From Candidatus Paraburkholderia calva (GTDB lineage Bacteria; Pseudomonadota; Gammaproteobacteria; Burkholderiales; Burkholderiaceae), in the NCBI GenBank assembly GCA_001184395.1, contig LFLF01000022.1, positions 1 through 40,354 on the forward strand: a stretch of 40,354 bases of DNA, given 5' to 3'. This document shows, piece by piece, positions 794 to 39,841 of this stretch. Position 1 is the first letter of the stretch. Every line of letters starts with the position of its first letter. The notes beneath the pieces were generated by a model. It searched no databases. It had not been told where the DNA came from and was given only the letters and a program-made list of their open reading frames with translations. A program made the translations under genes and the position numbers.

Positions 794-1718
794 TTACAAC
801 TTGGTCCACACCGCTTGCTCTGAACCGCGTGTACTGGTTCCGATGTGCGCGGCGGCGATGACTTCAACACGCTCCAGCTCCACAAGTGCGGCGCGCAAAG
901 CACTTCGGAATTTCCGCAGGAGGCTGGTGTATTGAAGCTTGTCTTTGAGCCAATCGAGGCCGTATCGCTGCACCTTGTCGGCAGAGGTAGCGACGAGGCG
1001 CTGCAACGTTTTGGCCATGTCTTGGCTTCGCTTGATTGCTAGGCGCTTCTCCCAATCGATACGCGCGAACTCCTGATACGCGCGAACTCCTGGTTGCTGT
1101 ACATGGCACCCATCGAGGGTCGATTACCAGCGTGTACTGCTTACGCGATGCGTCGTATCTGAATCGATCGATCATTCGTATTCCGTCGCCATCGGAGTCG
1201 CCGTCGCCAATGCGGTACTTGTTGACGACGTCGATGATCAATGTGGCCTTGTAGATTGCCTCCACGGCTCGTCGAAGCCACCGATACTCGGCCCCGCGGA
1301 TCTGCCGGCCCATCGCTTCGAGTATCGATGCGCTGCGCACATCGAACGGCTCGCCTATCAGGGAGGCCGACGCGACATGCATGAGCTGCATCAAGACGTC
1401 GGCCTGACTTTCGTCGAGTTGAATACCGGTGAATCTGATCACCACGTCGCGGCAGCTGATTAGGAGGTGATCGTTAAGGAAGCGTCGCTAGTGGGTCTTG
1501 GACAGAGGGGCAAACAGGCTGCTTCGAGCGATGTGATTCGGCATTGTCCGCATTGTCGGCTCTAGCCCGGGCAGGAACATTTGGCGAGGCCGTGCGAGCT
1601 CGCGTGCCGCCCGCTCTTGTATTCGCGACCACATTTCGGTGCTTAGGACGTTTCGAGGCTGCAGCGGTTCGAGGGGCTTTTGCGAGCGGAGCGCATCTTT
1701 GCTTTGCGAAGCATTCAT
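794..1718 (-). pseudogene. trfA: TrfA-type plasmid replication initiator, disrupted
   Basis: TrfA binds iterons at a plasmid origin and starts replication. The protein can be followed across three pieces. The N-terminus from ATG 1718 contains FLPGLEPTMRTMPNHIARSS. The core (from about 1487) contains VIRFTGIQLDESQADVLMQL, typical of the family, plus ATLIIDV and DRFRYD. The C-terminus contains FARIDWEKRLAI, up to stop 794-796. Three lesions separate them: TAG at 1488-1490 in the same frame as the core, an apparent 1-nt loss near 1112 after DPRW, and a 17-bp tandem duplication at 1058-1092 that shifts the frame. The small upstream gene overlaps the start by ATGA, implying translational coupling originally. 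It is clearly non-functional unless frames are rescued. Confidence 0.8.
1058..1092. repeat. 17-bp perfect tandem duplication inside trfA
   Basis: The unit gatacgcgcgaactcct occurs at 1058-1074 and 1075-1091, followed by g, so the repeat can be phased one base either way. Seventeen bases is not a multiple of three, so the duplication shifts the trfA frame between the core and the FARIDWEKR segment. Confidence 0.9.
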
Positions 1719-1894
1719 CGCTCGGCCCCCGCGCTGTATTCGTAACCTTGCCGCTTGGCGTCACCCTAGATCCAGCCGGAAAAGTAAGAGAAGGCGTCAA
1801 GACTGGCAGGGCATGGCGTTATGGCTCGACCGGTTTCGCCGGCCTCAAAGCCAGCGCGCCAAGCATCGGGATCAATCCGCGGACCGATCTTCAT
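1715..1894 (-). pseudogene. small conserved gene upstream of trfA, amber-interrupted
   Basis: Reading from ATG 1894 gives MKIGPRIDPDAWRAGFEAG, then PASLDAFSYFSGWI, a TAG at 1766-1768, then GDAKRQGYEYSAG and a TGA at 1715-1717. That TGA overlaps the trfA ATG (ATGA). The phrase DAWRAGFEAG...SYFSG.I.GDAKRQG resembles small proteins I recall beside trfA in broad-host-range-like plasmids. Removing the amber would give about 59 residues. Continuation of the same pattern after the TAG, without a frame change, argues for a nonsense mutation in a real small gene. Function unknown. Confidence 0.5.
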
Positions 1895-2239
1895 CGCGCC
1901 CCCCCTGGGTTGGCGACCGCGATTCGATCGCTTGGCGCTGCCAGGCTGCTTGCTGCGCTTTTATCGGCCGGCCGCGCGGGCGTCGGGCTGTAGGGGGCGG
2001 TGGTTCCCGACTTGCGTTAATCTACACGCAAGAACGTCACTTTCCCACCAGCACAGCTGCCGGCTGTTGGGCATCTTGAAAGGGCGAGGTATCAGGCGGA
2101 GGTACTTAGCGTTCGTCGCGCAACTACGAATGGTGGTCGGTGCTTTACCGATCAGCCTGGAGAGTTCTTCGATCAAATAAGACACGTACTGGCAGACGCG
2201 TACTGGCGCGTCTGCCTTGGCGTGGAACGGGACAGACAT
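1872..2239 (-). pseudogene. AlpA-like helix-turn-helix DNA-binding protein, frameshifted
   Basis: Start ATG 2239 is preceded by a GAGGTG ribosome site. The N-terminal part contains a helix-turn-helix-like SRLIGKAPTTIRSC, then PRPFKMPNSRQLCWWESDVLA, a pattern typical of AlpA/excisionase-type regulators (substrate-specific residues, then W..SDV.AW). After SDVLA the frame is lost near 2010-2020. A second frame then carries a plausible tail (KAQQAAWQRQAIESR) to TGA at 1872-1874, overlapping the next gene. It probably regulated the mobile element. The direction and overlap suggest an operon of this gene, the small gene and trfA. Confidence 0.5.
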
Positions 2240-2283
2240 GACACCTCACACGGGCTCGAAAGCGCGGTGAGGGGTAGGTGTCA
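2239..2283. promoter_or_regulatory. spaced inverted repeat upstream of the plasmid operon
   Basis: The arms tgacacct (2239-2246) and aggtgtca (2276-2283) are perfect inverted copies. Inside them, cctcac/gtgagg (2244-2249 and 2267-2272) also pair. The element touches the start codon of the AlpA-like gene. It could be an autoregulatory operator, or half-sites related to TrfA iterons, which share the TGACA core. This is inference only. Confidence 0.3.
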
Positions 2284-2363
2284 ACAGTCCTCACGTGTGT
2301 AGGCCCCGTGCGGGTGTTTGGCGGACATCGGGCAGGACTGCAATGAACGTTGCACTTCGTACA

Positions 2364-2383
2364 TTACTGTCTTTTACTGTCTT
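2364..2383. repeat. 10-bp tandem duplication
   Basis: Unit ttactgtctt occurs at 2364-2373 and 2374-2383, in non-coding DNA. It belongs to the series of short two-copy duplications seen across the window. Confidence 0.8.
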
Positions 2384-2559
2384 TGCCCCCGACGCCTTCG
2401 TTGTTCAAAGGTGCAGCGTTTCGTGTCGAGCTATCCCATACACTTACTTTGCTCGACCCTCCAGCGTCATCGTCAACAGCGCAGAGCGCGTGCCTCGAAT
2501 CCAGCATTCCGACTACAAGCTTTAGTCATGGATACCGACATGGGGAAAGTAGTACAAAA

Positions 2560-2593
2560 GAAATGTCCGGTCGACTGACAGAAATGTCCGGTC
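2560..2593. repeat. direct repeats with 21-bp period, possible insertion-sequence end
   Basis: gaaatgtccggtc occurs at 2560-2572 and 2581-2593, exactly 21 bp apart. A related inverted motif (gggacattc) follows at about 2600. Regularly spaced transposase-binding repeats of about 20 bp are found at the ends of IS21-type elements, so this may be the relic of one terminus. No transposase gene or second end is visible. Confidence 0.3.
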
Positions 2594-2699
2594 AACTACG
2601 GGACATTCTTGGGACAACCAGATGTAGGGTTTACTCTAACTCAACATGAACAGTGAGTTGGAAAAGGATCGATAACTCCTTGATCCCTTTGAAGAACTC

Positions 2700-2776
2700 T
2701 GGTCGGGGTGAGAGGATTCGAACCTCCGGCCTCTACGTCCCGAACGTAGCGCTCTACCAGGCTAAGCTACACCCCG
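2700..2776 (-). tRNA. tRNA-Pro, anticodon CGG
   Basis: The reverse strand begins CGGGGTGTAGC and ends CACCCCGACCA. The acceptor stem CGGGGTG/CACCCCG is perfect. The anticodon stem-loop CTACG-TTCGGGA-CGTAG gives anticodon CGG (codon CCG), and the T-loop GTTCGAATC is canonical. CCA is encoded at 2700-2702. Its 3' end faces the plasmid-derived segment at lower coordinates, the usual polarity for an integrative element inserted at a tRNA gene. Confidence 0.95.
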
Positions 2777-2834
2777 AATTTTCCAACTAATCTACTCTAC
2801 AAAACTCTGGACTCTTACGCCGTTCCAGGCTTTT

Positions 2835-3827
2835 TTAAGACTGCCTCAAAATCGAGTAAATATGCAATCTTAGCAGACTCTCTTTGAAAATGGAATCGGG
2901 AAATGAAGAAATTGCATTTGCCGCTGCCTGAGCCTCTTTGCGCGCGCATTCCAGCGTGTGATCCAGCGCGCCGGATGTCGTGATCGCGTGGAAGATCGTG
3001 TCGAAGCGGTCCGTGCCGCCTTGCTCGATCACCTCGCGCACGAGGGCCGCCTGTTCTTCCGTGCCGTGTTTCATCAGATAGATGAGCGGCAAAGTGGGCT
3101 TGCCTTCGCGCAGGTCGTCGCCGGCGTTCTTGCCCATCGATTCCGGCGTGCCGGTGTAGTCGAGCCAGTCGTCCATGATCTGAAACGCGGTGCCGATGCG
3201 CCGGCCGAATTCCGCCGCCGCCGCTTCGGTGCACGCATCGGAACCCGCGAGGACCGCGCCGAGTTGCGCCGCCGCTTCGAACAGCTTTGCCGTCTTGTAG
3301 CGGATCACTTGCATGTAGCGGGCTTCGTCCACATTCGGGTCGTGCATGTTGAGTAACTGCAGCACTTCGCCTTCGGAAATGATGTTGGTCGCAAAGGAGA
3401 GAATCTCCATCACGCGCATCTTCCCGACGCTCACCATCATCTCGAACGAGCGCGAGTACAGGAAGTCGCCGACCAGCACGCTCGCCGCATTGCCGAACAG
3501 CGCATTGGCGGTCTTACGGCCGCGACGCAGATCGGATTCGTCGACGACGTCGTCGTGCAGGAGCGTCGCCGTGTGAATGAACTCCACCACCGCCGCCAGT
3601 TCATGGCGATGTCCGGTCGCGTCGCCCAGCGCGCCCGAAACCAGCAGCAGCAGCGCCGGACGCAGCCGCTTCCCGCCCGCGCCGATGATGTACTCCGAAA
3701 TCTGGTTGATCAGCATCACTTCTGATGCCAGGCGCTGCCGGATGACGCGATTGACCTGCTGCATGTCCTCGGCGATCGGGGCGAGCAGCGCGGCGGCATT
3801 GGGAGAGGAAGTGGCGGTGGACGACAT
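2835..3827 (-). CDS. ispB: octaprenyl-diphosphate synthase
   Basis: 330 residues, the usual length for the trans-isoprenyl synthase that builds the C40 side chain of ubiquinone from IPP and FPP. The first aspartate-rich motif is HDDVVDESD (D92, D93, D96), followed by the RRGRKTAN arginines. The second is MDDWLDYTG (D219, D220, D223). GGKRLRP near residue 51 is the substrate-binding lysine/arginine segment. It is divergent from rplU-rpmA-obgE, the standard Burkholderiales arrangement. The assigned start, ATG 3827, precedes SSTATSSPNAAALL. No lesion is visible. Confidence 0.93.
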   Translation of the reverse strand: MSSTATSSPNAAALLAPIAEDMQQVNRVIRQRLASEVMLINQISEYIIGAGGKRLRPALLLLVSGALGDATGHRHELAAVVEFIHTATLLHDDVVDESDLRRGRKTANALFGNAASVLVGDFLYSRSFEMMVSVGKMRVMEILSFATNIISEGEVLQLLNMHDPNVDEARYMQVIRYKTAKLFEAAAQLGAVLAGSDACTEAAAAEFGRRIGTAFQIMDDWLDYTGTPESMGKNAGDDLREGKPTLPLIYLMKHGTEEQAALVREVIEQGGTDRFDTIFHAITTSGALDHTLECARKEAQAAANAISSFPDSIFKESLLRLHIYSILRQS

Positions 3828-4040
3828 GATCGGCGAATAGGGTAATGCGGCGGATTATAAGTCGAATCCGACTCGCGCCGGGACTCAGCGCGCCGGGAAC
3901 GGCCGCGCCGCGTGAATTCACGGGAAAATCAGGCGCTTTTCGCCGAGGATCGAGTGGCTACTGCGCACAAGCGGAGACACAAGCGGCATGTTGACTGCAT
4001 CGGCGCACCTGCGCGCTAAGAGCTGCCGCCGAGGCGAAAT

Positions 4041-4072
4041 ACGGAAACGTTAACGTACGGAAACGTTAACGT
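4041..4072. repeat. 16-bp tandem duplication upstream of the rplU promoter
   Basis: acggaaacgttaacgt occurs at 4041-4056 and 4057-4072. Each copy contains the perfect palindrome acgttaacgt. The second copy ends four bases before the -35 hexamer, so the duplication places two identical palindromes directly upstream of a ribosomal-protein promoter. Confidence 0.9.
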
Positions 4073-4075
4073 CTT

Positions 4076-4104
4076 TTGACGTCGCACGTAACTCTATGTA
4101 TAAT
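4076..4104 (+). promoter_or_regulatory. sigma70 promoter for rplU-rpmA
   Basis: TTGACG at 4076-4081 and TATAAT at 4099-4104 are separated by 17 bp, a near-consensus housekeeping promoter. The rplU start lies at 4169, giving a leader of about 60 nt. Confidence 0.85.
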
Positions 4105-4168
4105 AGTGAATTTTCCCGCGGCAACGCAAGTTGAAAACGGGAAAAATGAATTCAGAGTGAGGTTCTCA

Positions 4169-4480
4169 ATGTATGCTGTCATAAAAACCGGCGGCAAGCA
4201 GTACGAGGTTGCCGTTGGCGAAAAATTGAAAGTAGAACAGATACCCGCAGACATTGACGCAGAAATCACGCTCGACCAGGTTCTCGCCGTAGGCGAAGGC
4301 GAATCGATTAAGTTCGGTACGCCGCTGGTCAGTGGGGCTTCCGTCAAGGCTACCGTGGTGTCCCAAGGTCGTCATGCCAAAGTGACCATCTTCAAGATGC
4401 GTCGCAGGAAGCACTACCAAAAGCACGCTGGCCATCGCCAGAACTACACTGAACTGCGCATCGACGCGATCAACGCGTAA
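4169..4480 (+). CDS. rplU: 50S ribosomal protein L21
   Basis: 103 residues starting [18 protein letters not shown], the universal L21 N-terminus. The C-terminal [16 protein letters not shown] is the rRNA-binding signature. I chose ATG 4169 because GAGTGAGG lies about 6 nt upstream and longer in-frame starts fall in the promoter region. It is followed 33 nt later by rpmA, as in most bacteria. Intact. Confidence 0.97.
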
Positions 4481-4513
4481 GCGCATCGCATCGGTTGTTA
4501 AGGAGCTAAGCAA

Positions 4514-4774
4514 ATGGCACACAAAAAAGCAGGCGGGTCTTCCCGCAACGGCCGCGACTCCGAGTCGAAACGCCTCGGCGTGAAGGTGTACGGCGGCCAG
4601 GCAATCAACGCAGGCGGCATCATCGTTCGCCAGCGCGGCACGCGTATGCATCCGGGTGAGAATGTCGGCATCAGCAAGGATCACACCCTGTTCGCGCTGA
4701 CCGACGGCCACGTCAAGTTCGTGACCAAGGGCACCGCACGCAAGCACACGGTCGTCGTCGTCCCGGCAGCGTAA
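4514..4774 (+). CDS. rpmA: 50S ribosomal protein L27
   Basis: 86 residues, [19 protein letters not shown]..., the classical L27 start that reaches the peptidyl-transferase centre. The [16 protein letters not shown] core is complete. AAGGAG lies 9 nt upstream. It is co-transcribed with rplU and ends before a strong terminator. Intact. Confidence 0.97.
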
Positions 4775-4803
4775 GTTTCTTACGCACGGGCTTCAGGACC
4801 GGA

Positions 4804-4834
4804 AAGGCCCCGCGAAGTTCATGGGGCCTTTTTC
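4804..4834 (+). terminator. rho-independent terminator after rpmA
   Basis: The stem aaggcccc / ggggcctt (4804-4811 and 4823-4830) is followed by a T run. It separates the ribosomal-protein unit from obgE. Confidence 0.85.
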
Positions 4835-4932
4835 ATTGGTGCGCGGAAAACGCGCATCCAAAGAATTCAAGGTTATCGGTGATCGGCACTGACGGTCACG
4901 GCAAAATAGCAGCACGACACGGGACGGAGTAA

Positions 4933-6060
<1,128 letters not shown>

Positions 6061-6089
6061 ACGACATATCGATGAGGAGAAAGCGCACG

Positions 6090-7208
6090 ATGCGTTCGAT
6101 CATCGCCGCTGCGAAGCGAATCGTAGTGAAGGTAGGGTCCAGCCTCGTCACCAACGACGGGTGCGGGCTCGATCATGCAGCCATCGGCCGCTGGGCGTCG
6201 CAGATCGCGGCGTTGCGGGAGCAGGGCAAGGAAGTCGTGCTGGTGAGTTCGGGCGCGATCGCCGAAGGTATCCACCGGCTCGGCTGGAGCAAGCGGCCGC
6301 GTGAGATCGACGAATTGCAGGCGGCCGCGGCGGTCGGCCAGATGGGGCTGGCGCAGGTGTACGAGAGCAGCTTCGGCGCGCATAATATCCGCATCGCGCA
6401 GATCCTGCTTACGCACGCCGATCTCGCCGACCGCGAGCGTTATCTCAATGCGCGTTCCACCTTGCTCACGTTGTTGCGTTTCGGCGCGTTGCCGATCATC
6501 AACGAGAACGACACGGTCATCACCGACGAAATCAAGTTCGGCGACAACGACACGCTCGGCGCGCTCGTGGCCAATCTGATCGAAGGCGATGCGCTCGTCA
6601 TCCTCACCGATCAGCGCGGTCTCTTCACCGCCGATCCGCGCAAGGACCCGGGCGCGACGCTGGTCGAGCAGGCCTACGCCGGCACGCCCGAACTCGAGGC
6701 GATGGCCGGCGGCGCGGGCTCGAGCCTCGGACGCGGCGGCATGCTGACCAAGATTCTCGCGGCCAAGCGCGTGGCGCACAGCGGCACGAACACGGTGATC
6801 GCGAACGGCCGTGAAGCCGATGTCCTTACGCGCCTCGCATCGGGCGAAGCGATCGGTACGCAGTTGATCGCGCGCACGGCCCGCATGGCGGCGCGCAAGC
6901 AGTGGATGGCCGATCATCTGCAGGTGCGCGGGCACGTGGTCATCGACAATGGCGCGGTGCAAAAGCTCACCGACGACGGCAAAAGCCTCTTGCCCATCGG
7001 CGTGATCGACGTGAAGGGCGCGTTCGATCGGGGCGAAGTGATCGCGTGCGTGAACGGCGAAGGGCAGGAAGTGGCGCGCGGCATCACCAATTACAGCAGT
7101 TCGGAGGCGCGGCTGATCCATCGCCGGCCGAGCGGCGAGATCGAATCGGTGCTCAGCTATATGCTCGAGCCGGAACTGATCCATCGCGACAATCTGGTGC
7201 TGGTCTGA
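6090..7208 (+). CDS. proB: glutamate 5-kinase
   Basis: 372 residues from ATG 6090 ([24 protein letters not shown]). It phosphorylates glutamate in the first step of proline synthesis. The amino-acid-kinase domain shows [33 protein letters not shown] and GGMLTKI. A C-terminal PUA domain begins near residue 270 ([11 protein letters not shown]). An alternative in-frame ATG at 6072 exists, but it overlaps the ATGAGGAG that serves as the ribosome site. Probably co-transcribed with obgE. Intact. Confidence 0.95.
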
Positions 7209-7226
7209 AGTCCGCGGACGCGCACG

Positions 7227-7264
7227 AAAAAGCCCGCTGAGCCGAAAGGCCAGCGGGCTTTTGC
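7227..7264. terminator. bidirectional terminator between proB and the CNP1-like gene
   Basis: The stem aagcccgctg / cagcgggctt (7230-7239 and 7251-7260) is flanked by A-rich and T-rich sides, so it can terminate transcripts from both convergent genes. Confidence 0.85.
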
Positions 7265-7291
7265 ATGTTCAGCCGGAACGCGAAAACGCGA

Positions 7292-7873: not shown

Positions 7874-7933
7874 TTGGGTAATCCCGAAAACGTGCGCGCG
7901 AACCGAGTGGATCGCCGCGCGGAACAAGCAGAA

Positions 7934-7960
7934 CGGCACGGCGAGAATGTCGCCGTGCCG
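7934..7960 (-). terminator. hairpin downstream of rppH
   Basis: The perfect 11-bp stem cggcacggcga / tcgccgtgccg (7934-7944 and 7950-7960) lies about 50 nt past the rppH stop. It lacks a clear T run, so termination is only probable. Its presence argues against translation through this region. Confidence 0.5.
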
Positions 7961-8008
7961 CCGCTCAACCGTCTCTGACAAAGAGTTTTGGACCAGAAAG
8001 CGCGACGA

Positions 8009-11256: not shown

Positions 11257-11272
11257 TGGAGCGGTGGCAAGT

Positions 11273-11828
11273 TCAGGCGCCTTCAGTCAGCGCACGGATC
11301 GTCGACAGGTTGCGCCGTAGCCCTTCGCATCAATCCCGCAGCCGAACACATAGCGGTCTGGCACTTCGAAACCGCAAAAATCCGGACGCAACGGTTTCGC
11401 CTTCGGGATGATCTTCTCGCACAGCACCACCGACAGAAAATGCTTCGCGCCCATTGCCATGATGCGGTCGCGGATAGCGGCCATCGTTTCGCCTTCGTCG
11501 AGGATGTCGTCGAGCACGAGCACCACGCGATCCTTCACCGATTCCGCTGGCGCCGCGCGCCACTGCATCTCGCTGCCGCCCTTGATCGCGTTACGGTAAC
11601 GCGTCAGGTGGATGTATCGAACTCCATCGGGAAATCCAGATGCGGCAGCAGCATGCCGGTGAACACGGCCGCGCCGCCCATGACCGGCAGCAGCAACGGG
11701 AAGTCGTCTTTCGTCGCGGTCTTGATGTCCGCAGCTATGCGTGATCGACGCGTTAACTTCGTCAGCCGTGACGATCTCTTCGGAGTGGCTGAAAATGTGG
11801 AGATGTGGAGAGCTTCTTCGCGGTTCAT
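11273..11828 (-). pseudogene. hpt: hypoxanthine-type phosphoribosyltransferase, multiply frameshifted
   Basis: From ATG 11828: MNREEALHI, then scrambled sequence, then RIAADI, DDFPLLLPVMGGAAVFTGMLLPHLDFP. The frame is lost by one base near 11617 (GAT ACA instead of GAT TAC). The PRPP loop VLVLDDILDEGETM is in another frame (from about 11590), and a further 1-nt loss near 11318 precedes the tail TIRALTEGA to stop 11273. The first scramble is an 8-bp tandem duplication (11795-11810) compensated by a 2-nt loss. The intact enzyme would salvage hypoxanthine/guanine using PRPP. Four lesions make it dead. Confidence 0.85.
11795..11810. repeat. 8-bp tandem duplication in hpt
   Basis: atgtggag occurs at 11795-11802 and 11803-11810 and shifts the frame just after codon 9 of hpt. 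Removing one copy restores the expected HIFSHSEEIVTADEVNASIT reading. Confidence 0.88.
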
Positions 11829-18968: not shown

Positions 18969-19026
18969 ATGCCGGTCTTGTTTTGTGACGATTGTGTGAT
19001 GGGTGGTTCTTGGCTTTCGCTGTAGG

Positions 19027-19089
19027 TTTGCAGTAGCCGCCTCCCCGGCGGAGGGGTAACCCCTCCGCCGGGGAGGCGGCTACTGCAAA
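19027..19089. repeat. perfect 30-bp inverted repeat with 3-nt loop
   Basis: Arms 19027-19056 and 19060-19089 are exact reverse complements (starting tttgcagtagccgcctcc) around taa. The stem is followed by only short A runs, so it does not look like a standard terminator. It lies between nrdA and the flavin reductase gene, about 35 bp before the latter's start. It may be a member of a dispersed intergenic palindrome family. Confidence 0.92.
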
Positions 19090-19124
19090 AAGCGCGACAA
19101 GGGACGCCATTTGCCATTAGCCCG

Positions 19125-20971: not shown

Positions 20972-22239
20972 ATGAAATTTCGTGACGATACCGTGTCACT
21001 CGATCGCGACGATCCGCTCGGCGCGCTGCGCGCCCAGTTCGCGCTCGACGACCGCCTGATCTATCTCGACGGCAATTCGCTCGGCGTACCGCCGAAAGCC
21101 GCCGCGCGGGCCGCCGCCGTGATCGCCGGAGAATGGGGCGACGGCCTAATTCGTTGCTGGAACACGGCCAGCTGGTTCGACCTGCCCAAGCACCTCGGCA
21201 ACAAGCTCGTGCCTTTGATCGGCGCGGGTACGGACGAAGTCGTCGTCACCGATAAGATCTCGGCGAATCTGTTCAAGATTCTGTCGGCCGCGCTCAGGCT
21301 CGCAAATGAACGCGATCCGAAGCGCCGCGTCATCGTCTCCGAGCGTTCGAATTTCCCGACCGATCTGTACCGATCTGTATACTGTATTGCGTACTGTATT
21401 GCGCAGAGGCTGATCGAACAGCTCGATCGCGGCTACGAATTGCGGCTCATGGACGATCCGTCCGAGTTGCCGGCCGCCATCGACGGTCACACCGCGCTCG
21501 CGATGATCACGCACGTCAATTACCGCTCGGGGCTATATGCACGACATGGCCGTGCTCACGCAGACGATCCACCACGCGGGCGCGCTCGCCGTGTGGGATC
21601 TGGCGCATTCAGCGAGCGCGGTGCCGGTCGATCTGAACGGCGTCAGCGCGGATTACGCGGTCAGCTGCACCTATACAGTATCTGACGGCGGGCCAGGTTC
21701 GCCCGCTTTCGTATGGGTGCCGAAACGGCATCATAATGCGTTTTCGCGGCCGTTGTCCGGCTGGCGGGGCCACAAAAAAACATTCGAAATGGACACGGCC
21801 GGACAACGGCATCGCACGCTTCTTGTGCGGCACGCAGCCGATCGTGTCGATGTCGCTCGTCGAATGCGGACTCGACGTATTACTGCAGACGGACATGCAG
21901 GCGCTGCGCCGCAAATCGCTCGCGCTCAGCGATCTGTTCATCGCACTGGTGGAGGCGCGCTGCGGCGAGTTTCCGCTCACGCTCGCCACGCCGCGCGAGT
22001 ATGCGCGGCGCGGCTCGCAAGTGAGTTTCGAGCATCCGCACGGCTATGAAGTGATGCAGGCGCTGATCGCGTGCAGCGTAATCGGCGACTATCGCGAGCC
22101 GCGCATTCTGCGCTTCGGTTTTACGCCGCTGTACACGCGCTTCGCTGATGGCTGGGATGCCGTCGAAGTCCTGCGCGACGTGCTCGCGACCGAAAGCTGG
22201 CGCGCGCCGCAATTCGCCGAGCGCGCATCGGTGACCTGA
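20972..22239 (+). pseudogene. kynU: kynureninase, multiply disrupted
   Basis: From ATG 20972: [33 protein letters not shown] and [11 protein letters not shown] are normal. Nested tandem duplications (21359-21403) then add about nine residues, one extra G near 21530 shifts the frame at NYRSG, and another loss near 21800 moves to a third frame ([23 protein letters not shown] to the end). Around 21670, paired +1/-1 indels turn the expected Y-K-Y-L-N-GGPG into YTVSDGGPG, removing the lysine that binds PLP. No translation could give an active enzyme. Confidence 0.9.
21359..21403. repeat. adjacent 10-bp and 12-bp tandem duplications in kynU
   Basis: accgatctgt occurs at 21359-21368 and 21369-21378. 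tactgtattgcg occurs at 21380-21391 and 21392-21403. Together they convert the expected DLY-IAQ junction into [15 protein letters not shown], staying in frame. Confidence 0.88.
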
Positions 22240-26742: not shown

Positions 26743-27523
26743 GCGCGCCCCGCTACGGAATTGCGGACCGCGACGCGCCGCCAGAATGCCTGGTGCGTGC
26801 AGCCGTCTTCGGCCACGGCCACCGCGCCGTTGCAGTCGATATACGACGCTTTGCGCTTCGCCTGATTCGCATAGCCGCGCACGAGCACGCACACGTCCGC
26901 CGCGTACACATCGCGCCAGCGCTCACGCGCCATCGCGGATGCATTCACCCGCTCGCCGCACCGCCAGCCAGTACATCATCACGCCGATGCGTTCGATGCC
27001 TTCCACCATCGGCTGCGCCTGCTTGCCGCTGCCTTCGCAGTACAAGTTCCGGCGCGCCACTCGACGTGCTCGGCTTCGCGTAGAAGCGGTTGACGACGAA
27101 CGCGTCCGACACCGCTTGCCCGAGGCAATCCGTCGGGGCGTCGGTCGTCGATGGCCATGTGGAAATGGTGTCGGCGACGTAGCGCATCTAAATGCCGTTG
27201 GATTGGCCCGACAGCGTTTCGCACGATGGGGAAGTGGGGAAGTGTCCGCGCCAATTACCCGCCCCTGCGAGCAGCCGAAGAGCGCCGCATCGACGGTTGC
27301 GTTGGTGGCGGCAAAGCCCTGCCATCCAGATCTGCTAGCCGAGCAGATCGAGCGCGACGACGCCTGCGTCGTGAATGCGCGCGGCGTCGGTCGCGCGATC
27401 GAACGCCGCCCGCTGCGCCCGATATAGCGACAAACACGCCGCGACGATCAGCAAGCCGAGCGCGAGCGCAATCGTCAGTTCGAGCAGCATATGGCCGTGC
27501 CGCTTGAAGAGTGACGTGTTCAT
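26739..27523 (-). pseudogene. pilW: PilW-type minor pilin, several lesions
   Basis: ATG 27523: leader ending in HG, then HMLLELTIALALGLLIVAACLSLYRAQRAAFDRA. TAG at 27335-27337 follows LDLLG. Later segments are in other frames, including QIWMAG, a frameshifting 8-bp duplication at 27227-27242, a TAG at 27188-27190 just before MRYVADTISTWPSTTDAPTDCLGQAVSDAFVVNRFYAKP, and the C-terminal WRDVYAADVCVLVRGYANQAKRK..SYIDCNGAVA to stop 26739. Its start overlaps pilV and its end overlaps pilX. Dead. Confidence 0.85.
27227..27242. repeat. 8-bp tandem duplication in pilW
   Basis: tggggaag occurs at 27227-27234 and 27235-27242. Eight bases shift the pilW frame. Confidence 0.85.
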
Positions 27524-31510: not shown

Positions 31511-31648
31511 TTCCCTCAACGACTGAGGATTTCGCGACGCCGCTTGCGCTTCTAGTAAAATGCCGCAGATGAATATCTGTCAAAAAGCGAGCCGGAGCGG
31601 GTCGGGAAGCGGGCAAGCCCGCGGCCGCGCGGGCGAAGCGACGCAAAG

Positions 31649-32114: not shown

Positions 32115-32257
32115 GTACCACGATGGAAGCTGCGCATGCCCTCTTTCGACCGGAAAGAGCCGCCGCGCGGCTTTCGTTATTTTTAAAGCCGGATCACGAA
32201 CAACTGACGCGCCTTTGACCGGACGCCCGCATCAACCAGACGTACCAGCGGACCTTT

Positions 32258-32935: not shown

Positions 32936-32952
32936 GGAAAAAGGAGTTCACG

Positions 32953-33396
32953 ATGGCAGGCCCGATCCGTTCCAGCATGCGCGGCAGTTCGCGCCGCGCG
33001 ATGGCCGACATCAACGTCGTGCCGTACATCGACGTGATGCTCGTGCTGCTCGCCATCTTCATGGTGACGGCGCCGCTCGTGTCGCCGTCTATCATCAATC
33101 TGCCGACGGTCGGCAACGCGCAGCCGCAGGAACAGCAGCCGCCGCTCATGATCAATATCAAGACCGACGGCAGCATGAACATCCGCTACAAGGACGACAA
33201 CGGCTCGTCTCAAGAGCAGAAGATGACCAAGAGCGATCTCAACACGTTCGTGCTGAACCGCCAGGAGTCGCATCCTGATCAGCCGGTCGTCATCGCGGCG
33301 GACAAGACGGTGAAGTACGAGGCCGTCGTGAACGTGATGTCCGATATAAAGGCGCGTGGCGTGAAGCGCGTCGGATTGCTCGTCAAATCGCAATGA
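32953..33396 (+). CDS. tolR: Tol-Pal system protein TolR
   Basis: 147 residues from ATG 32953. One transmembrane helix with the essential aspartate in YIDVMLVLLAIFMVTAPLV (D27), then a periplasmic domain ending VKRVGLLVKSQ. AAGGAG lies upstream. Stop overlaps the tolA ATG (ATGA at 33393). Intact. Confidence 0.95.
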   Translation: MAGPIRSSMRGSSRRAMADINVVPYIDVMLVLLAIFMVTAPLVSPSIINLPTVGNAQPQEQQPPLMINIKTDGSMNIRYKDDNGSSQEQKMTKSDLNTFVLNRQESHPDQPVVIAADKTVKYEAVVNVMSDIKARGVKRVGLLVKSQ

Positions 33397-34430
33397 TCGG
33401 TTCGCGGAACACCCAGCCACGGCCAGCGGACGGACAGGCGTCCGCGCGACCCGTCCGTCCGCCACGCGAGCGTGGGACGTGGAAGGCATTCGTGCTCGCC
33501 GCGCTGATGCATCTGCTGTTGATCTGGCTGCTCTATCACGGCATCAACTGGCAGAACAACACGCCCGCGGGCGCCGAGGCGGAAATCTGGACCCAGATTC
33601 CGGACACGCCCGCGCCGACGCCGCGCCCCGCTCCCCCGCCGCCCGCGCCGGTGAAAGTGCAGCCCGCGCCGCCGCCGGCGAAGGACGAGGACGCGGACAT
33701 CGCGCTGCAAGAAAAGAAGCGTAAGCAGCAGGAAGCCGCGCAGCGCGAGGCCCAGCTCACCGAGCAGCGCCGTCAGCAGGAGCAGACGCGGCAGGAAGCG
33801 GAAGCCAAGCGTCAGCAGCAAAAGGCGATGCAGGACAAGCAGAGGCAGATCGAGCAGCAGCGTCAGGCCGATCTCCAAAAGCAGCAACAGTTGAAAGCGC
33901 AGCAGGACAAGCAGCGCCAGCAGCAGGCCGAAGCGCAGAAGCAGGAGCAGCTCAAGGAACAGCAGAAGGAACAGCAGGAAACCAAGGCCAAAGCCGATGC
34001 GCAAGCCAAGGCAAAGGCCGCGGCCGAAGCGAAAGCGAAGCTCGATGCGGAACGCAAGGCGCGCATGGCCCAGTTGCAGAATCAGCTCGGCGGCAGCACG
34101 GTAGTTAGCGGCGAAGGTCTTGCGAAGGGCGGCTCGGGCAAGGGCGCGGGCGGCAACGCGAAGTCGCCGGGCTATGCGGAGAAGGTCCAGCGTCGCGTGC
34201 GGCCGAATATCATCTGGAGCGGCGAAACCACCGGTCTCGAAACCGTGGTCTCGGTTCGTTGCTCGCCTTCGGGCACCTTGCTGTCCGCGAGCGTGACGAG
34301 ATCGAGCGGCAACGAGCAGTGGGATGCCGCGGCACTGCGCGCGGTCCGAAACTCCGATCCGATGCCTGTCGATATCGACGGCAAGGCACCGGATCACTTC
34401 ACGATCACGCTGCGTCCGGCGGGCGGTTGA
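33393..34430 (+). CDS. tolA: Tol-Pal system protein TolA
   Basis: 345 residues. A cytoplasmic arginine/proline-rich start leads to one transmembrane helix (AFVLAALMHLLLIWLLYHGINW) and a proline-rich stretch, then about 130 residues of Gln/Lys/Ala coiled-coil repeats spanning the periplasm. A C-terminal TonB-like domain follows (VQRRVRPNIIWSGETTGLETVVSVRCSPSGTLLSASVTRSSGNEQWDAAALRAV). It couples TolQR energy to TolB/Pal. Low-complexity repeats here have not suffered a frameshift. Intact. Confidence 0.93.
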   Translation: MIGSRNTQPRPADGQASARPVRPPRERGTWKAFVLAALMHLLLIWLLYHGINWQNNTPAGAEAEIWTQIPDTPAPTPRPAPPPPAPVKVQPAPPPAKDEDADIALQEKKRKQQEAAQREAQLTEQRRQQEQTRQEAEAKRQQQKAMQDKQRQIEQQRQADLQKQQQLKAQQDKQRQQQAEAQKQEQLKEQQKEQQETKAKADAQAKAKAAAEAKAKLDAERKARMAQLQNQLGGSTVVSGEGLAKGGSGKGAGGNAKSPGYAEKVQRRVRPNIIWSGETTGLETVVSVRCSPSGTLLSASVTRSSGNEQWDAAALRAVRNSDPMPVDIDGKAPDHFTITLRPAGG

Positions 34431-34535
34431 GCCCCGCCGGACGTCTTCTGTGGATTGGGAACGAATTGTGCTTCCGGGGATCTGTTCTGCAGTCTCCGAC
34501 ACCTGAAAAACGCTTTTTTTGGAACCTATAACAGC

Positions 34536-35828
34536 ATGAGTTTGATGACGAAGTTTAGCCTGAGAACGCTGGTCGCGCCCTGCCTGATCGCAGCCGGTAC
34601 CGCTGCGCACGCCCAGTTGAACGTACTCGTGACCGGCGTCGGCTCCACGCAATTCCCCATCGCGACGGCCAATTTCGCCAACGAAGCCAGTTCGCCGCAG
34701 CAAGTGAGCGCGATCGTCCGTCAAGACCTGCAGGGCAGCGGCAAGTTCACGAATATCGATGCGGGCAGCACGCCGCTATCGGACGCCAACTCGGTTGATC
34801 TCGGCGCATGGAAGGCAAAAGGCGCGAATGCGTTCGTGTCAGGCAGCGTCAACAAGCTGCCGAACGGCCAGTATGAAGTGCGCTTCCGCCTCTACGACAC
34901 GTTAAGCCAGCAGAATCTCGGCGGCCTGTCGCTCGTCTCCGGTGAAGGCGGCCTGCGCATGAGCGCGCACAAGATTGCGGATTACATCTACGCCAAGCTG
35001 CTCGGTTCGCGCGGCGTGTTCGCGACGCGTCTGTCTTATGTCATCCAGACGGGCGGACGCTATCAGTTGCAGATTTCCGACTCGGACGGCCAGGACGCGA
35101 AGATCGCCCTCTCCAGCCCCGAGCCGATCATCTCGCCGGCGTGGTCGCCGGACGGCACGAAGGTCGCGTACGTGTCGTTCGAGAAGAAAAAGCCGGTGGT
35201 GTATATCCACGATCTGCCGACGGGACGTCGCGTGGTCGTGTCGAATCAGAAGGGTAACAACAGTGCGCCGGCATGGTCGCCCGATGGTCGCAAGCTGGCG
35301 GTCGCCCTGTCGCGCACCGGCAATACACAAATATTCGAAGTCAACGCAGACGGCACCGGCCTGCGCCGTCTGACCCAAGGCAGTTCCATCGACACCGAGC
35401 CGTTCTTCTCTCCCGATGGCAACTGGATTTATTTCACGAGTGATCGCGGCGGCCAACCGCAGATCTACAAGATCCCGGCGGCGGGGGAAAGCGCCGGCGC
35501 GGCCCAGCGGGTCACGTTCACGGGTTCGTACAACACGAGTCCGCGCATGAGCCCTGACGGCAAGCAACTCGCGTACATTTCGCGCACTGGCGGCGGCTTC
35601 AAGCTGTACTTGCAGGACCTCGCGTCCGGCACGGCAACGGGGCTGACCGACACGACGCATGACGAATCGCCGAGTTTCGCGGCGAATGGTCAGTACATCC
35701 TTTACGCCACCCAAGTGAACGGACGTGGCGTTTTGGCGGCGGTGTCGACTGATGGTCGCACGCGGCAAGTCTTGTCAGTTCAGGGCGGTGTGGTACGCGA
35801 GCCGTCCTGGGGTCCGTTCATGCAATAA
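34536..35828 (+). CDS. tolB: Tol-Pal system protein TolB
   Basis: 430 residues from ATG 34536. Signal peptide ending in AHA before QLNVLVTG. An N-terminal domain precedes a beta-propeller with repeated motifs [48 protein letters not shown] and [15 protein letters not shown]. Periplasmic partner of Pal. A farther upstream in-frame start lacks support. Intact. Confidence 0.94.
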
Positions 35829-35883
35829 GTCCAGCAATAACGTTTCACATACAACGTTCAGCTACAACACAAGGAGAAGTACC

Positions 35884-36390
35884 ATGATGTCGAAACTTCG
35901 TATCGGCCTAGCAGTTGCGATGGTCGGCGCATTGGCAGCTTGTCATTCGGGCGTGAAGCTCGATGAAGGCGCGAACAAGGGTGGCGTCAGCACGCAGCCG
36001 AACCCGAACGACGTGAAGCAGGTCAACATCGACCCGCTGAACGATCCGAACAGCCCGCTCGCCAAGCGCAGCATCTATTTCGACTTCGACAGCTATGCCG
36101 TGAAGGACGACTATCAGCCGCTGCTGCAACAACACTCGTCGTACCTGAAGACCCATCCGGAGCGTCACGTCCTGATTCAGGGCAACACCGACGAACGCGG
36201 CACAAGTGAGTACAACCTGGCGCTCGGCCAAAAGCGTGCGGAAGCCGTGCATCGCGCCATGTCGCTGATGGGCGTGGCCGATTCGCAGATGGAAGCCGTG
36301 TCGCTCGGCAAGGAAAAACCGACGGCGACGGGTCACGACGAAGCATCGTGGGCACAGAACCGCCGCGCGGATCTCGTGTACCAGCAGTAA
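35884..36390 (+). CDS. pal: peptidoglycan-associated lipoprotein Pal
   Basis: 168 residues with two adjacent ATG codons (35884, 35887), preceded by AAGGAG. The lipoprotein signal ends LAAC (C20). The OmpA-like peptidoglycan-binding domain shows IYFDFDSYAV, IQGNTDERGTSEYNLALGQKRAEAV and NRRADLVY. Anchors the outer membrane to the wall. Intact. Confidence 0.95.
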   Translation: MMSKLRIGLAVAMVGALAACHSGVKLDEGANKGGVSTQPNPNDVKQVNIDPLNDPNSPLAKRSIYFDFDSYAVKDDYQPLLQQHSSYLKTHPERHVLIQGNTDERGTSEYNLALGQKRAEAVHRAMSLMGVADSQMEAVSLGKEKPTATGHDEASWAQNRRADLVYQQ

Positions 36391-36426
36391 TCCGAGTAAC
36401 GTAACCAGACACGGGTGAGTCGCTCT

Positions 36427-37170
36427 ATGTTGTATCGCTTCCCCTTGCTGCGCGTCGCCGCAGCCGCGTGCGTCGCCGGTTCGACGATGCTGAGCGTGCC
36501 CGCGCACGCTGGCGTTTTCGACGACAACGAAGCACGTAAAGCCGTCCTCGATCTGCGCACCAAGACCGATAGCCTGAGCAATCAGTTGTCGGCCGCGCAA
36601 CGCACGATCCTCGATCAGCAGAACCGCATCGACCAGTTGAATCAGCAGGTCGCGACGGTTCGTGGCCAGAATGAGGACCTCGCGAATCAGGTCACCACGC
36701 TGCAAAAACAGCAGAAGGACTATTACGCCGATCTCGACACGCGCCTGAAGAAATTCGAGCCGCAGCAAGAGACCATCGATGGCGTAACGGGCGCCGTGCA
36801 ACCCGGCGAGACGGAAGCCTTCAACGCAGCGTCGACTCAGTTCCGCAACGGTGACTACAAGGGCGCCTCGGCGGCCTTCAAGGCGTTCGTGGCAAAGTAC
36901 CCGCAGAGCCCGTATCAGCCGACGGCGCGCTACTGGCTCGGCAATGCGTTATATGCGCAGCGTGACTACAAGGCATCGACTGCGATCTGGCAGGATCTGG
37001 TGAAGCAGTATCCGCAACATCCGCGCGCGCCCGAGGCGCTGCTCGCGATTGCGAACAATCAGGTCGAACAAGGTCAGAAGGCGGCCGCCAAGCAGACGTT
37101 GCAGCAGGTCGTCTCACAGTACGCCGGTTCCGAGGCTGCGCAAACGGCGCAAAGCAAGTATCGCAGGTGA
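36427..37170 (+). CDS. cpoB: cell division coordinator CpoB (YbgF)
   Basis: 247 residues from ATG 36427 (a GTG at 36415 would add four residues, but GGTGAG there serves better as ribosome site). Signal peptide to VPAHA, N-terminal coiled coil (LRTKTDSLSNQLSAAQRTILDQQNRI), then tetratricopeptide repeats (FNAASTQFRNGDYKGASAAFKAFVAKYPQSPYQPTARYWLGNALYAQRDYKAS). Last gene of the tol-pal cluster, modulating TolA and PBP1B activity. Intact. Confidence 0.92.
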   Translation: MLYRFPLLRVAAAACVAGSTMLSVPAHAGVFDDNEARKAVLDLRTKTDSLSNQLSAAQRTILDQQNRIDQLNQQVATVRGQNEDLANQVTTLQKQQKDYYADLDTRLKKFEPQQETIDGVTGAVQPGETEAFNAASTQFRNGDYKGASAAFKAFVAKYPQSPYQPTARYWLGNALYAQRDYKASTAIWQDLVKQYPQHPRAPEALLAIANNQVEQGQKAAAKQTLQQVVSQYAGSEAAQTAQSKYRR

Positions 37171-37279
37171 AGTAAAGCGCGACGCCTTCGGGCGTCGTGC
37201 GAGTCGAGGGAAGTGTTCGCGGTCTGTGATCTCGCGTGCGTTTTCCTTCGACGTTTGAGGCAGGTGCCGCGGTTTTTGG

Positions 37280-37309
37280 TTGACAGTGCCGGACCTCCCC
37301 GCTTATAAT
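37280..37309 (+). promoter_or_regulatory. promoter of tRNA-Lys
   Basis: TTGACA (37280-37285) and TATAAT (37304-37309), 18 bp apart, both full consensus. The mature tRNA begins 12 bp after the -10. Confidence 0.88.
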
Positions 37310-37321
37310 TTTACGTCTTTC

Positions 37322-37397
37322 AGGTCGTTAGCTCAGCTGGTAGAGCAGCGGACTTTTAATCCGTTGGTCACAGGTTCGAATCCTGTACGGCCTACCA
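37322..37397 (+). tRNA. tRNA-Lys, anticodon TTT
   Basis: 76 nt with acceptor stem AGGTCGT/ACGGCCT, D-arm GCTCAGCTGGTAGAGC, anticodon loop CTTTTAA (anticodon TTT), T-loop GTTCGAATC and encoded CCA. Canonical and intact. Confidence 0.96.
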
Positions 37398-37400
37398 AAG

Positions 37401-37424
37401 ATCAAGCAAAAAATCAAGCAAAAA
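37401..37424. repeat. 12-bp tandem duplication after tRNA-Lys
   Basis: atcaagcaaaaa occurs at 37401-37412 and 37413-37424 between the tRNA and its terminator. Confidence 0.85.
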
Positions 37425-37451
37425 GCCCAGTCCTCAAGACTGGGCTTTTTG
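37420..37451. terminator. bidirectional terminator after tRNA-Lys
   Basis: The stem aagcccagtc / gactgggctt around ctcaa has A-rich and T-rich flanks. It serves the tRNA and could serve the convergent acyltransferase relic. Confidence 0.88.
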
Positions 37452-37531
37452 CTTTCTTGCGGGTGTTTTCGCGCACATTTTTGTGCGTACGCCGTCCGGA
37501 GAGCGGAAGCGGGAGATCAGAGCAGCTTCGC

Positions 37532-38694
37532 TTACGCCAGATCGCCCTCTTTCGCGAAGCTCGGCGTCTGCTGATGCGTCGCCGCGCGGCGCTCGAGCCA
37601 TCGCATCATGAGCTTGCGGCCGGGCACTTCGATCGGGTGATAGCACACACCGTCGCCAGCACGATCACCGAGCCGAGCGCGGACACGAACGACACCACGC
37701 CGCCGAGCGCGCCGAGATGCGCCTCGAAGACCGGCGTGACGCACTTCACCGCCGGCGCGAGCAGCATGTGCGTGAGATAGATCGAAAATGAGATCTTACC
37801 GAAGAAGAGAACACACCACGCGATTGCCGAACAGCGCGTTGGCAGCTTTGGAATCGCCATAGCACGCGATCACGATGAGAAACAGTCCCGCGTAGATGAC
37901 GAGATCGTGCGCGCCGGCCGCGTAGACCGCGAGCGTCGCCATCACTGCGAGCAGCGCGAATGCGTTGCCGGGGAAGCAAGCGCGCCCACGCGCATCCGGC
38001 TCACGAGCCGATACGCAAGCAAGCCGAACGTGAAGCCCGCGATGCATCGCATCAGCGGATGAAGTTCGTCGCCCTGGATCACGTTCAGGTATCCGCCGTA
38101 ACCACTGCAATCGTGGCCGCCGGTCGCCGCCGTCATCAGCAGAAAGATCATCAGCGCCGACACGCACCACGCCATCGCCGCACGGCTGCCGATCGCCAGC
38201 GCGACCAGCACAGGGAACAGCACATAGGCGGCGAATTCCGTGCGCAACGACCAAGCCGGCATTACGACGCTATGCGAAATGCCCCACGCCTGAACGAGGA
38301 ACATATTCGCGAGCATGGCTTTCAGGTTCCATGTCACGGGCATGAGCAAGCCGAGCAGAACGTGCTTGCTCAGGTCGTACAGCGTTTGAATGAACGTGAC
38401 GGCGATATACAGCGGAAACACCCGCGCAATGCGCTTCTTCACAAACGCGACATAAGACTCGCACCCCGCGCCGAGCGTCACCGACAACGCATAGTTGAGC
38501 GCCAGCACCAGCCCGCTCAGCATGAAGAACAGATCGACGACGAGATACGCATGCTGCCACGGCCGCAGCGCCACGCCCGCGTGATCGAAATAGTGATACG
38601 CGACCACCGCCAGCGCCGCGATGCCGTGCACGCCGGTCATCGGACGGATTTCGCCCGATACGGTGCGGGATGAAAGTACGCGCGAAGAATTCAT
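37532..38694 (-). pseudogene. acyltransferase-3-type membrane protein, frameshifted
   Basis: ATG 38694 with a GAGGCAGG-like ribosome site. GVHGIAALAVVAYHYFDHAG, YLVVDLFFMLSGLVLALNYA, RIARVFPLYIAV and MPAWSLRTEFAAYVLFPVL are typical of the multi-helix acyltransferase 3 family that O-acylates surface sugars. The frame is lost near 37980 (AFALLAVMATLAVYAAGAHDLVIYAG in another frame), near 37815 (LFFGKISFSIYLTHMLLAP in a third) and again near the end (EVPGRKLMMRWLERR). Adjacent to a broken glycosyltransferase, suggesting a lost polysaccharide locus. Confidence 0.85.
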
Positions 38695-38823
38695 GGCTAA
38701 CCTGCCTCTCAACTGGGCCGCTCAGGCTTTCCCGCCCAGCGAACTCCCTACTGCCGAATCCGCCTTGCGCAGCGAAGCGGGCGCGATAGGCCGGCCCACG
38801 CGATTCATCTCCGCGCGGAACTC

Positions 38824-39841
38824 TTAGGCGGCGAAACGTTCCACCTTGGCGGGGCATGCCGCCGACGTGAAGAGATGTTCGTTCGCTTCGAAATGCTTTA
38901 CCGCGTCACACAGCGACGCCTCGGTCTGCTCGGAGAAGAACATCCCGGTCGGCTACATCCCGGTCGGCTGCTCTTCGGTCAGGCTGACCACCGTCTCCAG
39001 CGCGCCGCCCTTTCCATATGCGATCACCGGCGTGCCGCAGGCCTGCGCCTCGACCACCGAAATGCCGAAGTCCTCCTCGGGCAGCGAACACGAACACGCG
39101 GGCGCGCTGCAGGTGATCGCGCAAGACCTTGAACGACTAATAGCCGAGAATCTCGACATTCGGCCCCGCGACTGCCTTGATCTTGCGCATCTCCGGGCCG
39201 TCGCCGATCACGACGAGACGCTTCTCCGGCATCGTCGAAAAGGCCTTCACGATCAGATCGATGCGCTTGTACGACACCATGCGCGACGCCGTCAGATAGA
39301 AATCGTCCTTGTCGTGACGCACCGATAGATCGCTTACATCGACCGGCGGATAGATCACCGTCGCGGCACGCCCGTAAAACTTCCGGATGCGCCGTGCGAC
39401 GAAATGCGAGTTCGAAATCAGATGATCGACAACGTTGTTCGAACGGACACCCATCCGCACATGTAATACAGCATGGCGCGTACGACCAGCAACTTCAGGC
39501 TAGAGCGAATGCACGTAACTCACGTGAAGCTGATTCGGGCCGGTCAGCACACCCTTCGCGACCGCATACGAACTGGAGATCACGAGTTCGTATTCCGACA
39601 GGTCGAGTTGCTCGATGGCGAGCGGCATCAACGCGAGATAGTGACGGTAGTGCGTGCGCGCGAACGGCAACTTCTGAATGAACGAAGTGCGCACCGGCCA
39701 GCCCCGCAGGCAGAATCGATCCTCGAGAAAATCCACGACCGTGAAGATGTCGGCATTCGGAAAACACTCGATCATCTGCTCGAGAACTTTCTCAGCGCCG
39801 CCGGACGCGGTCAACCAGTCGTGAACGATGGCAACTTTCAT
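38824..39841 (-). pseudogene. GT4-type glycosyltransferase, multiply disrupted
   Basis: ATG 39841: MKVAIVHDWLTASGGAEKVLEQMI, DIFTVVDFLE, ISSSYAVAKGVLTG and HVSYVHS, typical of WbaZ/WcaI-like GT4 enzymes. A deletion removes the segment after VHS (the frame meets TAG at 39500-39502). The protein resumes as DHLISNSHFVARRIRKFYGR, YPPVDV, VSYKRIDLIVKAF and [11 protein letters not shown] to ILGY and TAG 39137-39139. A 1-nt insertion follows before [29 protein letters not shown] (donor-binding E-x7-E). A 15-bp duplication at 38940-38969 then creates TAG 38953-38955. The tail runs to stop 38824. Confidence 0.9.
38940..38969. repeat. 15-bp tandem duplication creating a stop codon
   Basis: acatcccggtcggct occurs at 38940-38954 and 38955-38969. 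On the reverse strand the junction between copies reads ATG-TAG-CCG, so an in-frame repeat of P-T-G-M is split by an amber codon that exists only because of the duplication. Confidence 0.9.

What the first reader, a model, noticed from the sequence alone, without database searches (positions are those of the whole stretch)
1058..38969. Recurrent short perfect tandem duplications as a mutational signature
Ten two-copy tandem duplications of 8-18 bp are visible: 1058 (17 bp), 2364 (10), 4041 (16), 5932 (18), 11795 (8), 21359 (10), 21380 (12), 27227 (8), 37401 (12), 38940 (15). They lie in trfA, hpt, kynU, pilW and a glycosyltransferase, in intergenic DNA, and once in frame inside the essential obgE. 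The copies are identical, so they are recent. This is more than I would expect in an ordinary genome and points to replication slippage or end-joining-like repair as a main driver of gene loss here.
Basis: partly seen in the sequence, partly recalled or inferred. Interest (0 to 1): 0.8.

Follow-up and report, generated by a model that had tools for sequence, protein, structure and literature searches.

The report
Short DNA duplications in decaying genome
A shrinking Caballeronia-like bacterial genome carries many fresh, exact 10-20-letter side-by-side DNA copies, probably scars of broken DNA that was filled in and rejoined; they look real and unusual, but they are a minor cause of its gene loss.

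Summary
In detail: all ten listed duplications are there, and nine perfect tandems of period >=10 stand where simulations give 0.12-0.18. In 760 kb of this genome there are 47 two-copy tandems of 13-30 bp (6.2/100 kb). The closest relative held, G015, has 0 in 173 kb; four free-living relatives have 3 in 426 kb; one reduced genus-mate, G018, has 10 in 208 kb. Where relatives align they lack the second copy. Slippage does not fit: junction microhomology equals chance (59 sites, P=0.63), lengths are level from 10 to 18 bp and fall sharply by 21, and units are poorer in GC than neighbouring DNA. One-mismatch copies exceed background (13 vs 5.0), against a pure assembly artefact. Ku and LigD are pseudogenes, ku holding a 19-bp duplication; PolA, MutS, MutL, RecA and RecB are open. 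Best reading: staggered breaks filled in and joined without Ku-LigD. Relaxed selection explains part of the excess: corrected for non-coding share it is only 2.4-fold over free-living genomes and not significant, though still significant against G015 and G034. 'Main driver of gene loss' is not supported: about 3 of 97 polarised indels in the window.

The parts
1058..1092 (.). 17-bp tandem duplication in a trfA-like pseudogene; the reading frame of the relative's protein changes here
   Evidence: G015 lacks 17 bases; frame change; TrfA domain of the G015 ORF
2180..2207 (.). 14-bp tandem pair with one mismatch (possible aged duplication)
   Evidence: no relative aligns across it
2364..2384 (.). 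10-bp tandem duplication, no gene found by homology here
   Evidence: no relative aligns across it
4040..4072 (.). 16-bp tandem duplication, intergenic, upstream of a conserved ORF pair (4157-4774) that I take to be rplU-rpmA (recalled)
   Evidence: relatives align only from 4075 on
5930..5967 (+). 18-bp in-frame duplication near the 3' end of obgE (4936-6060)
   Evidence: missing in G015, G017, G021, G018 and in 49 of 54 named loci; Obg domains
11795..11811 (-). 8-bp duplication in the start region of hpt; shifts the frame
   Evidence: missing in four relatives and in 50 of 52 named loci; phosphoribosyltransferase domain downstream
21359..21379 (+). 10-bp duplication in a kynU pseudogene, first part of a composite 27-bp insertion
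   Evidence: kynureninase domain of the relative's ORF
21380..21403 (+). 12-bp duplication abutting the former: more than one event at one place
27227..27244 (.). 8-bp duplication in degenerate sequence
   Evidence: G017, G021 and G018 lack 8 bases, G015 lacks 8 in two pieces; local identity only 69-74%
37401..37424 (.). 12-bp duplication four bases after tRNA-Lys (37322-37397)
   Evidence: G017 and G021 lack 12 bases, G015 lacks 11; tRNA
38940..38969 (.). 15-bp duplication, gene not identified
   Evidence: no relative aligns across it; no Pfam match in the ORFs tested

Best explanation
The duplications are scars of staggered double-strand breaks. Two nicks on opposite strands, up to about 20 bp apart, open into a break with 5' overhangs; the overhangs are filled in and the two blunt ends are joined, so that the stretch between the nicks is left twice. 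Shown here: the insertions are derived where testable, exact, without junction microhomology beyond chance, 10 to about 20 bp long with a sharp upper limit, poorer in GC than neighbouring DNA, and not gathered at contig ends. Inferred: the paired nicks, the fill-in, the joining enzyme, and that joining does not need the dead Ku-LigD pair. The upper limit and the AT-richness would follow if the stretch between the nicks must melt. Relaxed selection lets the scars accumulate; a raised rate in this lineage and in G018 is likely but less certain.
For: 81 two-copy perfect tandems of 10-21 bp in 760,070 bp, counts 15,7,12,7,6,8,7,7,6 for 10-18 bp, then 2,3,1 for 19-21 bp, and no two-copy one of 22-80 bp. 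Microhomology as at random places: extensions 0/1/2/3+ in 29/20/7/3 of 59 sites against 31/16/7/5 expected, P=0.63. Relatives lack one unit at every site that aligns across. Unit GC 0.561 against 0.602 nearby, P=0.0025. One-mismatch copies, non-multiples of three, 13 against 5.0 expected, P=0.002. Excess over G015 (P=2e-5) and over free-living relatives (P=1e-8). The same kind in G018, where no Ku and no full LigD was found. ku and ligD dead, ku with a perfect 19-bp duplication.
Against: No raw reads seen. GC does not fall with unit length (rho -0.01, P=0.93), which a simple melting limit would predict. G034, G035 and G003 also lack an intact Ku and have fewer tandems (1, 0, 2). Corrected for non-coding share, the excess over free-living genomes is 2.4-fold with P=0.07. 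One-mismatch copies of multiples of three are not in excess (5), nor are those of G018. In the G018, G015 and G017 loci aligned no perfect tandem insertion of >=8 bp appeared. The weak A at -3 is not explained. No joining enzyme is identified.
Confidence: 0.45

Rival explanations
1. Ordinary short insertions and relaxed selection only: tandem duplication is a usual form of short insertion, and this genome merely keeps more of them because much of it is pseudogene.
For: One in ten derived duplications of the window lies in a strongly conserved gene, in frame. After division by the share of random places without coding flank, free-living genomes hold 3 where 7.2 are expected, P=0.07. Single-base indels are also abundant.
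Against: By the same correction G015 holds 0 where 7.4, and G034 1 where 11.3 are expected (P=6e-4 and 2e-4). The level spectrum with a sharp limit is not a general decay curve.
Confidence: 0.22
2. Products of classical Ku-LigD end joining, made before ku and ligD decayed, now kept as fossils.
For: The intact pair is present in G015 and in the free-living genomes tested. In mammalian cells paired-nick duplications depend on Ku (PMC8355091, passages).
Against: Exact copies outnumber one-mismatch copies (29 against about 8 above background), so most are young; dead ku itself holds a perfect 19-bp duplication beside an 11-bp one with a mismatch; G018 has no Ku match and yet 10 exact tandems; genomes with intact Ku have few.
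Confidence: 0.13
3. Assembly artefact: short overlaps of neighbouring pieces not merged, read as tandem copies.
For: Draft of 301 contigs; exact copies; length limit near 20. By the looser definition, 4 of 10 derived duplications of the window lie in open genes that make up 58% of it, no depletion (P=0.20). Reads not seen.
Against: Excess of one-mismatch copies; a composite site with abutting duplications; 4 of 52 within 500 bp of the ends of 29 whole contigs, 3.6 expected; with a stricter definition, chosen afterwards, 1 of 10 in conserved genes making up 45% (P=0.02), and that one in frame; GC bias of units.
Confidence: 0.11
4. Replication slippage between short direct repeats.
For: The classical cause of small duplications (recalled).
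Against: No microhomology beyond chance at 59 sites; MutS, MutL and PolA open; lengths level, not decaying.
Confidence: 0.04
5. Target-site duplications left when a mobile element excised.
For: A weak junction bias exists (A at -3); recurring 20- and 21-bp tandem units in G018 look element-borne.
Against: Lengths spread evenly over 10-21 bp, whereas one element family makes a near-fixed length (recalled); no element remnant at the aligned sites; the counted units do not recur.
Confidence: 0.02

Closest known systems
Small tandem duplications from paired-nick breaks in mouse and human cells (PMC8355091; passages read)
   Same: Exact tandem copies arise when complementary overhangs are filled in and joined.
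   Different: There Ku80 loss cuts tandem duplications from 60.9% to 11.7% of outcomes, the overhangs are 3' and about 43-50 bases, and fill-in is by CST-Pol alpha-primase; here Ku-LigD is dead and units are at most about 21 bp.
Patch-repair tandem duplications in rice (PMC7971508; passages read; it cites Vaughn and Bennetzen 2014, not held)
   Same: Most insertions are tandem duplications judged not to be slippage but repair of adjacent nicks.
   Different: Their share stays high up to about 125 bp; here the limit is near 20 bp, and this is a bacterium.
Bacterial Ku-LigD non-homologous end joining (listings only)
   Same: Joins ends without long homology; the pair is present in the relatives.
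   Different: Both genes are pseudogenes here and no full pair was found in G018.
Spontaneous rearrangements in Salmonella (PMC3411829; abstract and passages)
   Same: Spontaneous duplications in a bacterium, studied by junctions.
   Different: The confirmed junctions there have long microhomology (22 confirmed with more than 10 bp); here there is none beyond chance.

Membership tests
Staggered-break / paired-nick tandem duplication | Derived exact tandem copy where relatives have one | tested here: met
   at each site that aligns across, relatives lack one unit (37401: 11 or 12 bases; 27227 at low identity); 2364, 4040 and 38940 could not be aligned
Staggered-break / paired-nick tandem duplication | No junction microhomology | tested here: met
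   59 sites, P=0.63 against random placement
Staggered-break / paired-nick tandem duplication | Unit length equals the distance between two nicks | not testable with these tools
   needs an induced-nick experiment
Classical Ku-LigD end joining | Intact Ku and LigD | tested here: not met
   both broken in this genome
Replication slippage | Short direct repeats at the junctions | tested here: not met
Mismatch-repair or polA defect | mutS, mutL or polA broken | tested here: not met
   open over the whole profile
Assembly artefact | Only exact copies, gathered at contig ends, placed without regard to function | tested here: inconclusive
   ends not enriched; one-mismatch copies in excess; placement test depends on the definition of intact gene (P=0.20 loose, 0.02 strict and post hoc); reads not available
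Mobile-element target-site duplication | Near-fixed unit length | tested here: not met
   spread over 10-21 bp

The most novel reading that the evidence does not exclude
Losing Ku-LigD early in host restriction unmasks a Ku-independent bacterial joining route that fills in staggered breaks of up to about 20 bp and seals them blunt, giving a young burst of exact 10-20-bp duplications, one of them inside ku itself. It would be a bacterial counterpart of the paired-nick duplications of plants and mammals, with its own length limit, and a readable record of break repair in symbionts that cannot be cultured.
Probability: 0.15. Interest if true: 0.75.

Novelty: new variant of a known kind. Interest (0 to 1): 0.45.

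Why it matters
Bacterial genome decay is usually told through single-base indels, large deletions and insertion sequences (recalled). A separate duplication signature without microhomology and with a hard length limit would give a readable trace of double-strand-break repair in uncultured bacteria, and would suggest that exact end joining goes on after Ku-LigD is lost. I saw no description of such a signature in bacteria in the listings of the nine answered paper searches; these listings were capped and the library is open-access only, so this is weak evidence of absence.

Tried and rejected
Replication slippage, loss of mismatch repair or polA, target-site scars and a contig-end artefact were tested and set aside. 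The link 'no Ku, therefore duplications' fits G000 and G018 against G015 and the free-living genomes, but G034, G035 and G003 also lack an intact Ku and have fewer tandems, so it is kept only as the novel case. A coding-frame classifier was too blunt to test constraint: even free-living DNA came out as continuous coding at only 39% of random places; duplications of 13-30 bp fell there in 4 of 41, random places of this genome in 18%. A junction motif (A at -3) reached P=0.002 by a maximum statistic in the pooled set, but G018 alone did not show it; left unexplained. Deletions of 5 bp or more in the same lineage (15 listed) show mixed microhomology (0 to 6 bases) and were too few to use.

Rows dropped before counts: tandems of 2.6 copies or more in this genome; in G018 eight 20- and 21-bp tandems of recurring units; in G034 a three-copy 16-bp repeat; in G017 a 34-bp three-copy repeat; in the named set a 36-bp one; in this genome a 45-bp three-copy repeat. 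Locus L295 (contig C200) reads N throughout; it is in the 673,060 bases but not in the 760,070. L285, used, was picked for being dense in duplications, so its indel counts are not a fair sample.
Full report
What the window is. The window is one whole contig (C133, 40,354 bp) of a genome of 4.2 Mb in 301 contigs, 99% complete by the tool's figure. Its nearest named relatives by ObgE are Caballeronia species; Candidatus Burkholderia crenata is also in that list of 80. Genus-mates include large and several reduced genomes. The nearest held relative is G015 (84-90% identity over matches of more than 1 kb), itself 6.2 Mb. I call G017, G001, G012 and G036 free-living from their size and, for G017, from a contig of the same length as in the Caballeronia zhejiangensis record; that is inference, as is the idea that this genome belongs to a host-bound symbiont.

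The observation. All ten listed duplications exist. The window has 9 tandems of period 10 or more where Markov simulations give 0.12-0.18; periods 7 and 8 are not in clear excess. Of two further tandems, 18223 is shared with the relatives and 33954 lies in repetitive coding sequence.

Density in this genome and in relatives. In 760,070 bp from 46 stretches of this genome there are 81 two-copy perfect tandems of 10-21 bp, 47 of 13 bp or more. Counts of 13-30 bp elsewhere, with the filters told under Tried and rejected: G018 10 in 207,952; G015 0 in 173,211; G034 1 in 95,162; G035 0 in 60,114; G003 2 in 83,508; G001, G012, G036 and G017 together 3 in 426,476; 80 named loci around obgE 4 in 1,494,192. 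At this genome's rate one expects 12.9 in G018 (P=0.26), 10.7 in G015 (2e-5), 5.9 in G034 (0.02), 3.7 in G035 (0.02), 5.2 in G003 (0.11), 26.4 in the free-living set (1e-8). The named loci surround an essential gene and are a biased control. Relaxed constraint explains part of the contrast: by the crude classifier the share of random places with no coding flank is 20% here, 19.5% in G018, 14% in G015, 39% in G034, 12.5% in G003 and 5.5% in the free-living set. With that correction the expected numbers are 12.4, 7.4, 11.3, 3.2 and 7.2, against 10, 0, 1, 2 and 3 seen (P=0.31, 6e-4, 2e-4, 0.38 and 0.07). So the lineages differ, but the excess over free-living genomes alone is not secure.

Direction and age. 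Where relatives align across a site they lack one unit: 1058 (G015), 5930 in obgE (four relatives, 49 of 54 named loci), 11795 in hpt (four relatives, 50 of 52 named loci), the composite 21359-21403 (four relatives), 37401 (12 bases in G017 and G021, 11 in G015) and, at low identity, 27227. 2364, 4040 and 38940 could not be tested. Tandem pairs of 13-24 bp, not multiples of three, with one mismatch number 13 in 675,292 bp, where G015, free-living and named loci predict 5.0 (P=0.002); multiples of three (5) and G018 (2 and 2) show no such excess. Two polarised examples are a 16-bp and an 11-bp insertion with one mismatch each. Exact copies (29) outnumber aged ones, so most are young.

Anatomy. 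Lengths are level from 10 to 18 bp (15, 7, 12, 7, 6, 8, 7, 7, 6), then 2, 3 and 1 at 19, 20 and 21; no two-copy tandem of 22-80 bp was found. The extension beyond two units matches random placement at 59 sites of 12 bp or more. Units are poorer in GC than nearby stretches (0.561 against 0.602, P=0.0025), but GC does not change with length. An A three bases outside the unit is over-represented (0.36 in this genome, 112 junctions; pooled P=0.002). Counts per 5-kb bin are close to Poisson (132 bins, mean 0.61, variance 0.77), and contig ends are not enriched (4 of 52, 3.6 expected).

Where they fall. Of ten derived or probably derived duplications of the window, one (obgE, in frame) lies in the strongly conserved genes (85% identity or more), which make up 45% of the window (P=0.02, on intervals); that cut was chosen afterwards. 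By the script's own looser cut 4 of 10 lie in open genes making up 58% (P=0.20). The duplications at 1058 and 11795 change the frame of trfA and hpt; those at 21359-21403 lie in kynU, which has further frameshifts.

Repair genes. PolA, MutS, MutL, RecB and RecA match over nearly their whole profiles without stops. Ku is open in G015, G017, G021, G012, G001 and G036; here it is split over two frames with stops, in G034 split and partial, and no match was found in G018, G035 and G003 (G003 is 60% complete). LigD is open in G015 and G034 and in the free-living genomes; here it holds 3 TGA. Own ku carries a perfect 19-bp tandem duplication (L258:1619-1658), an 11-bp tandem insertion with one mismatch and single-base lesions; ligD beside it has a 16-bp deletion.

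Reading. Exact duplication without microhomology and with a length limit is what fill-in of a staggered break followed by blunt joining would leave. Such products are described from paired nicks in mammalian cells, where they need Ku (PMC8355091, passages), and are inferred for rice (PMC7971508, passages). Confirmed spontaneous junctions in Salmonella have long microhomology instead (PMC3411829, abstract and passages). Here the Ku route is dead, so either joining is Ku-independent or the scars predate its loss; the youth of the copies, the perfect duplication inside dead ku and the case of G018 favour the former. Which enzyme joins is unknown. The claim that duplications drive gene loss is not borne out: of 97 polarised indels of the window 48 are single-base and about 3 are tandem duplications of 8 bp or more; as controls, the G015, G018 and G017 loci of that call showed no perfect tandem insertion of 8 bp or more.

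Noticed in passing
L258:1471-3423 (contig C278 of this genome): Adjacent ku and ligD are both pseudogenes here, while the pair is open in G015; in G034 Ku is broken but LigD is open.
   Followed up: partly
window 19019-19112: A short stretch matches both strands at dozens of places in G015, like a dispersed palindromic repeat.
   Followed up: no
G035 (2.8-Mb genus-mate): No RecA match over the cut-off (best E 2.5e-4), although the genome is listed as 100% complete.
   Followed up: no
G018 loci L133-L136, L138-L141: Tandem units of 20 and 21 bp recur unchanged in several loci, probably part of a repeated mobile element.
   Followed up: no
junctions of the duplications, genome-wide: An A three bases outside the unit is over-represented (0.36, pooled P=0.002); a possible preference of the nicking activity, unexplained.
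   Followed up: partly
window 21359-21403: Two abutting duplications and extra bases (27 bp net, so in frame) at one place in kynU suggest repeated events at one site.
   Followed up: partly
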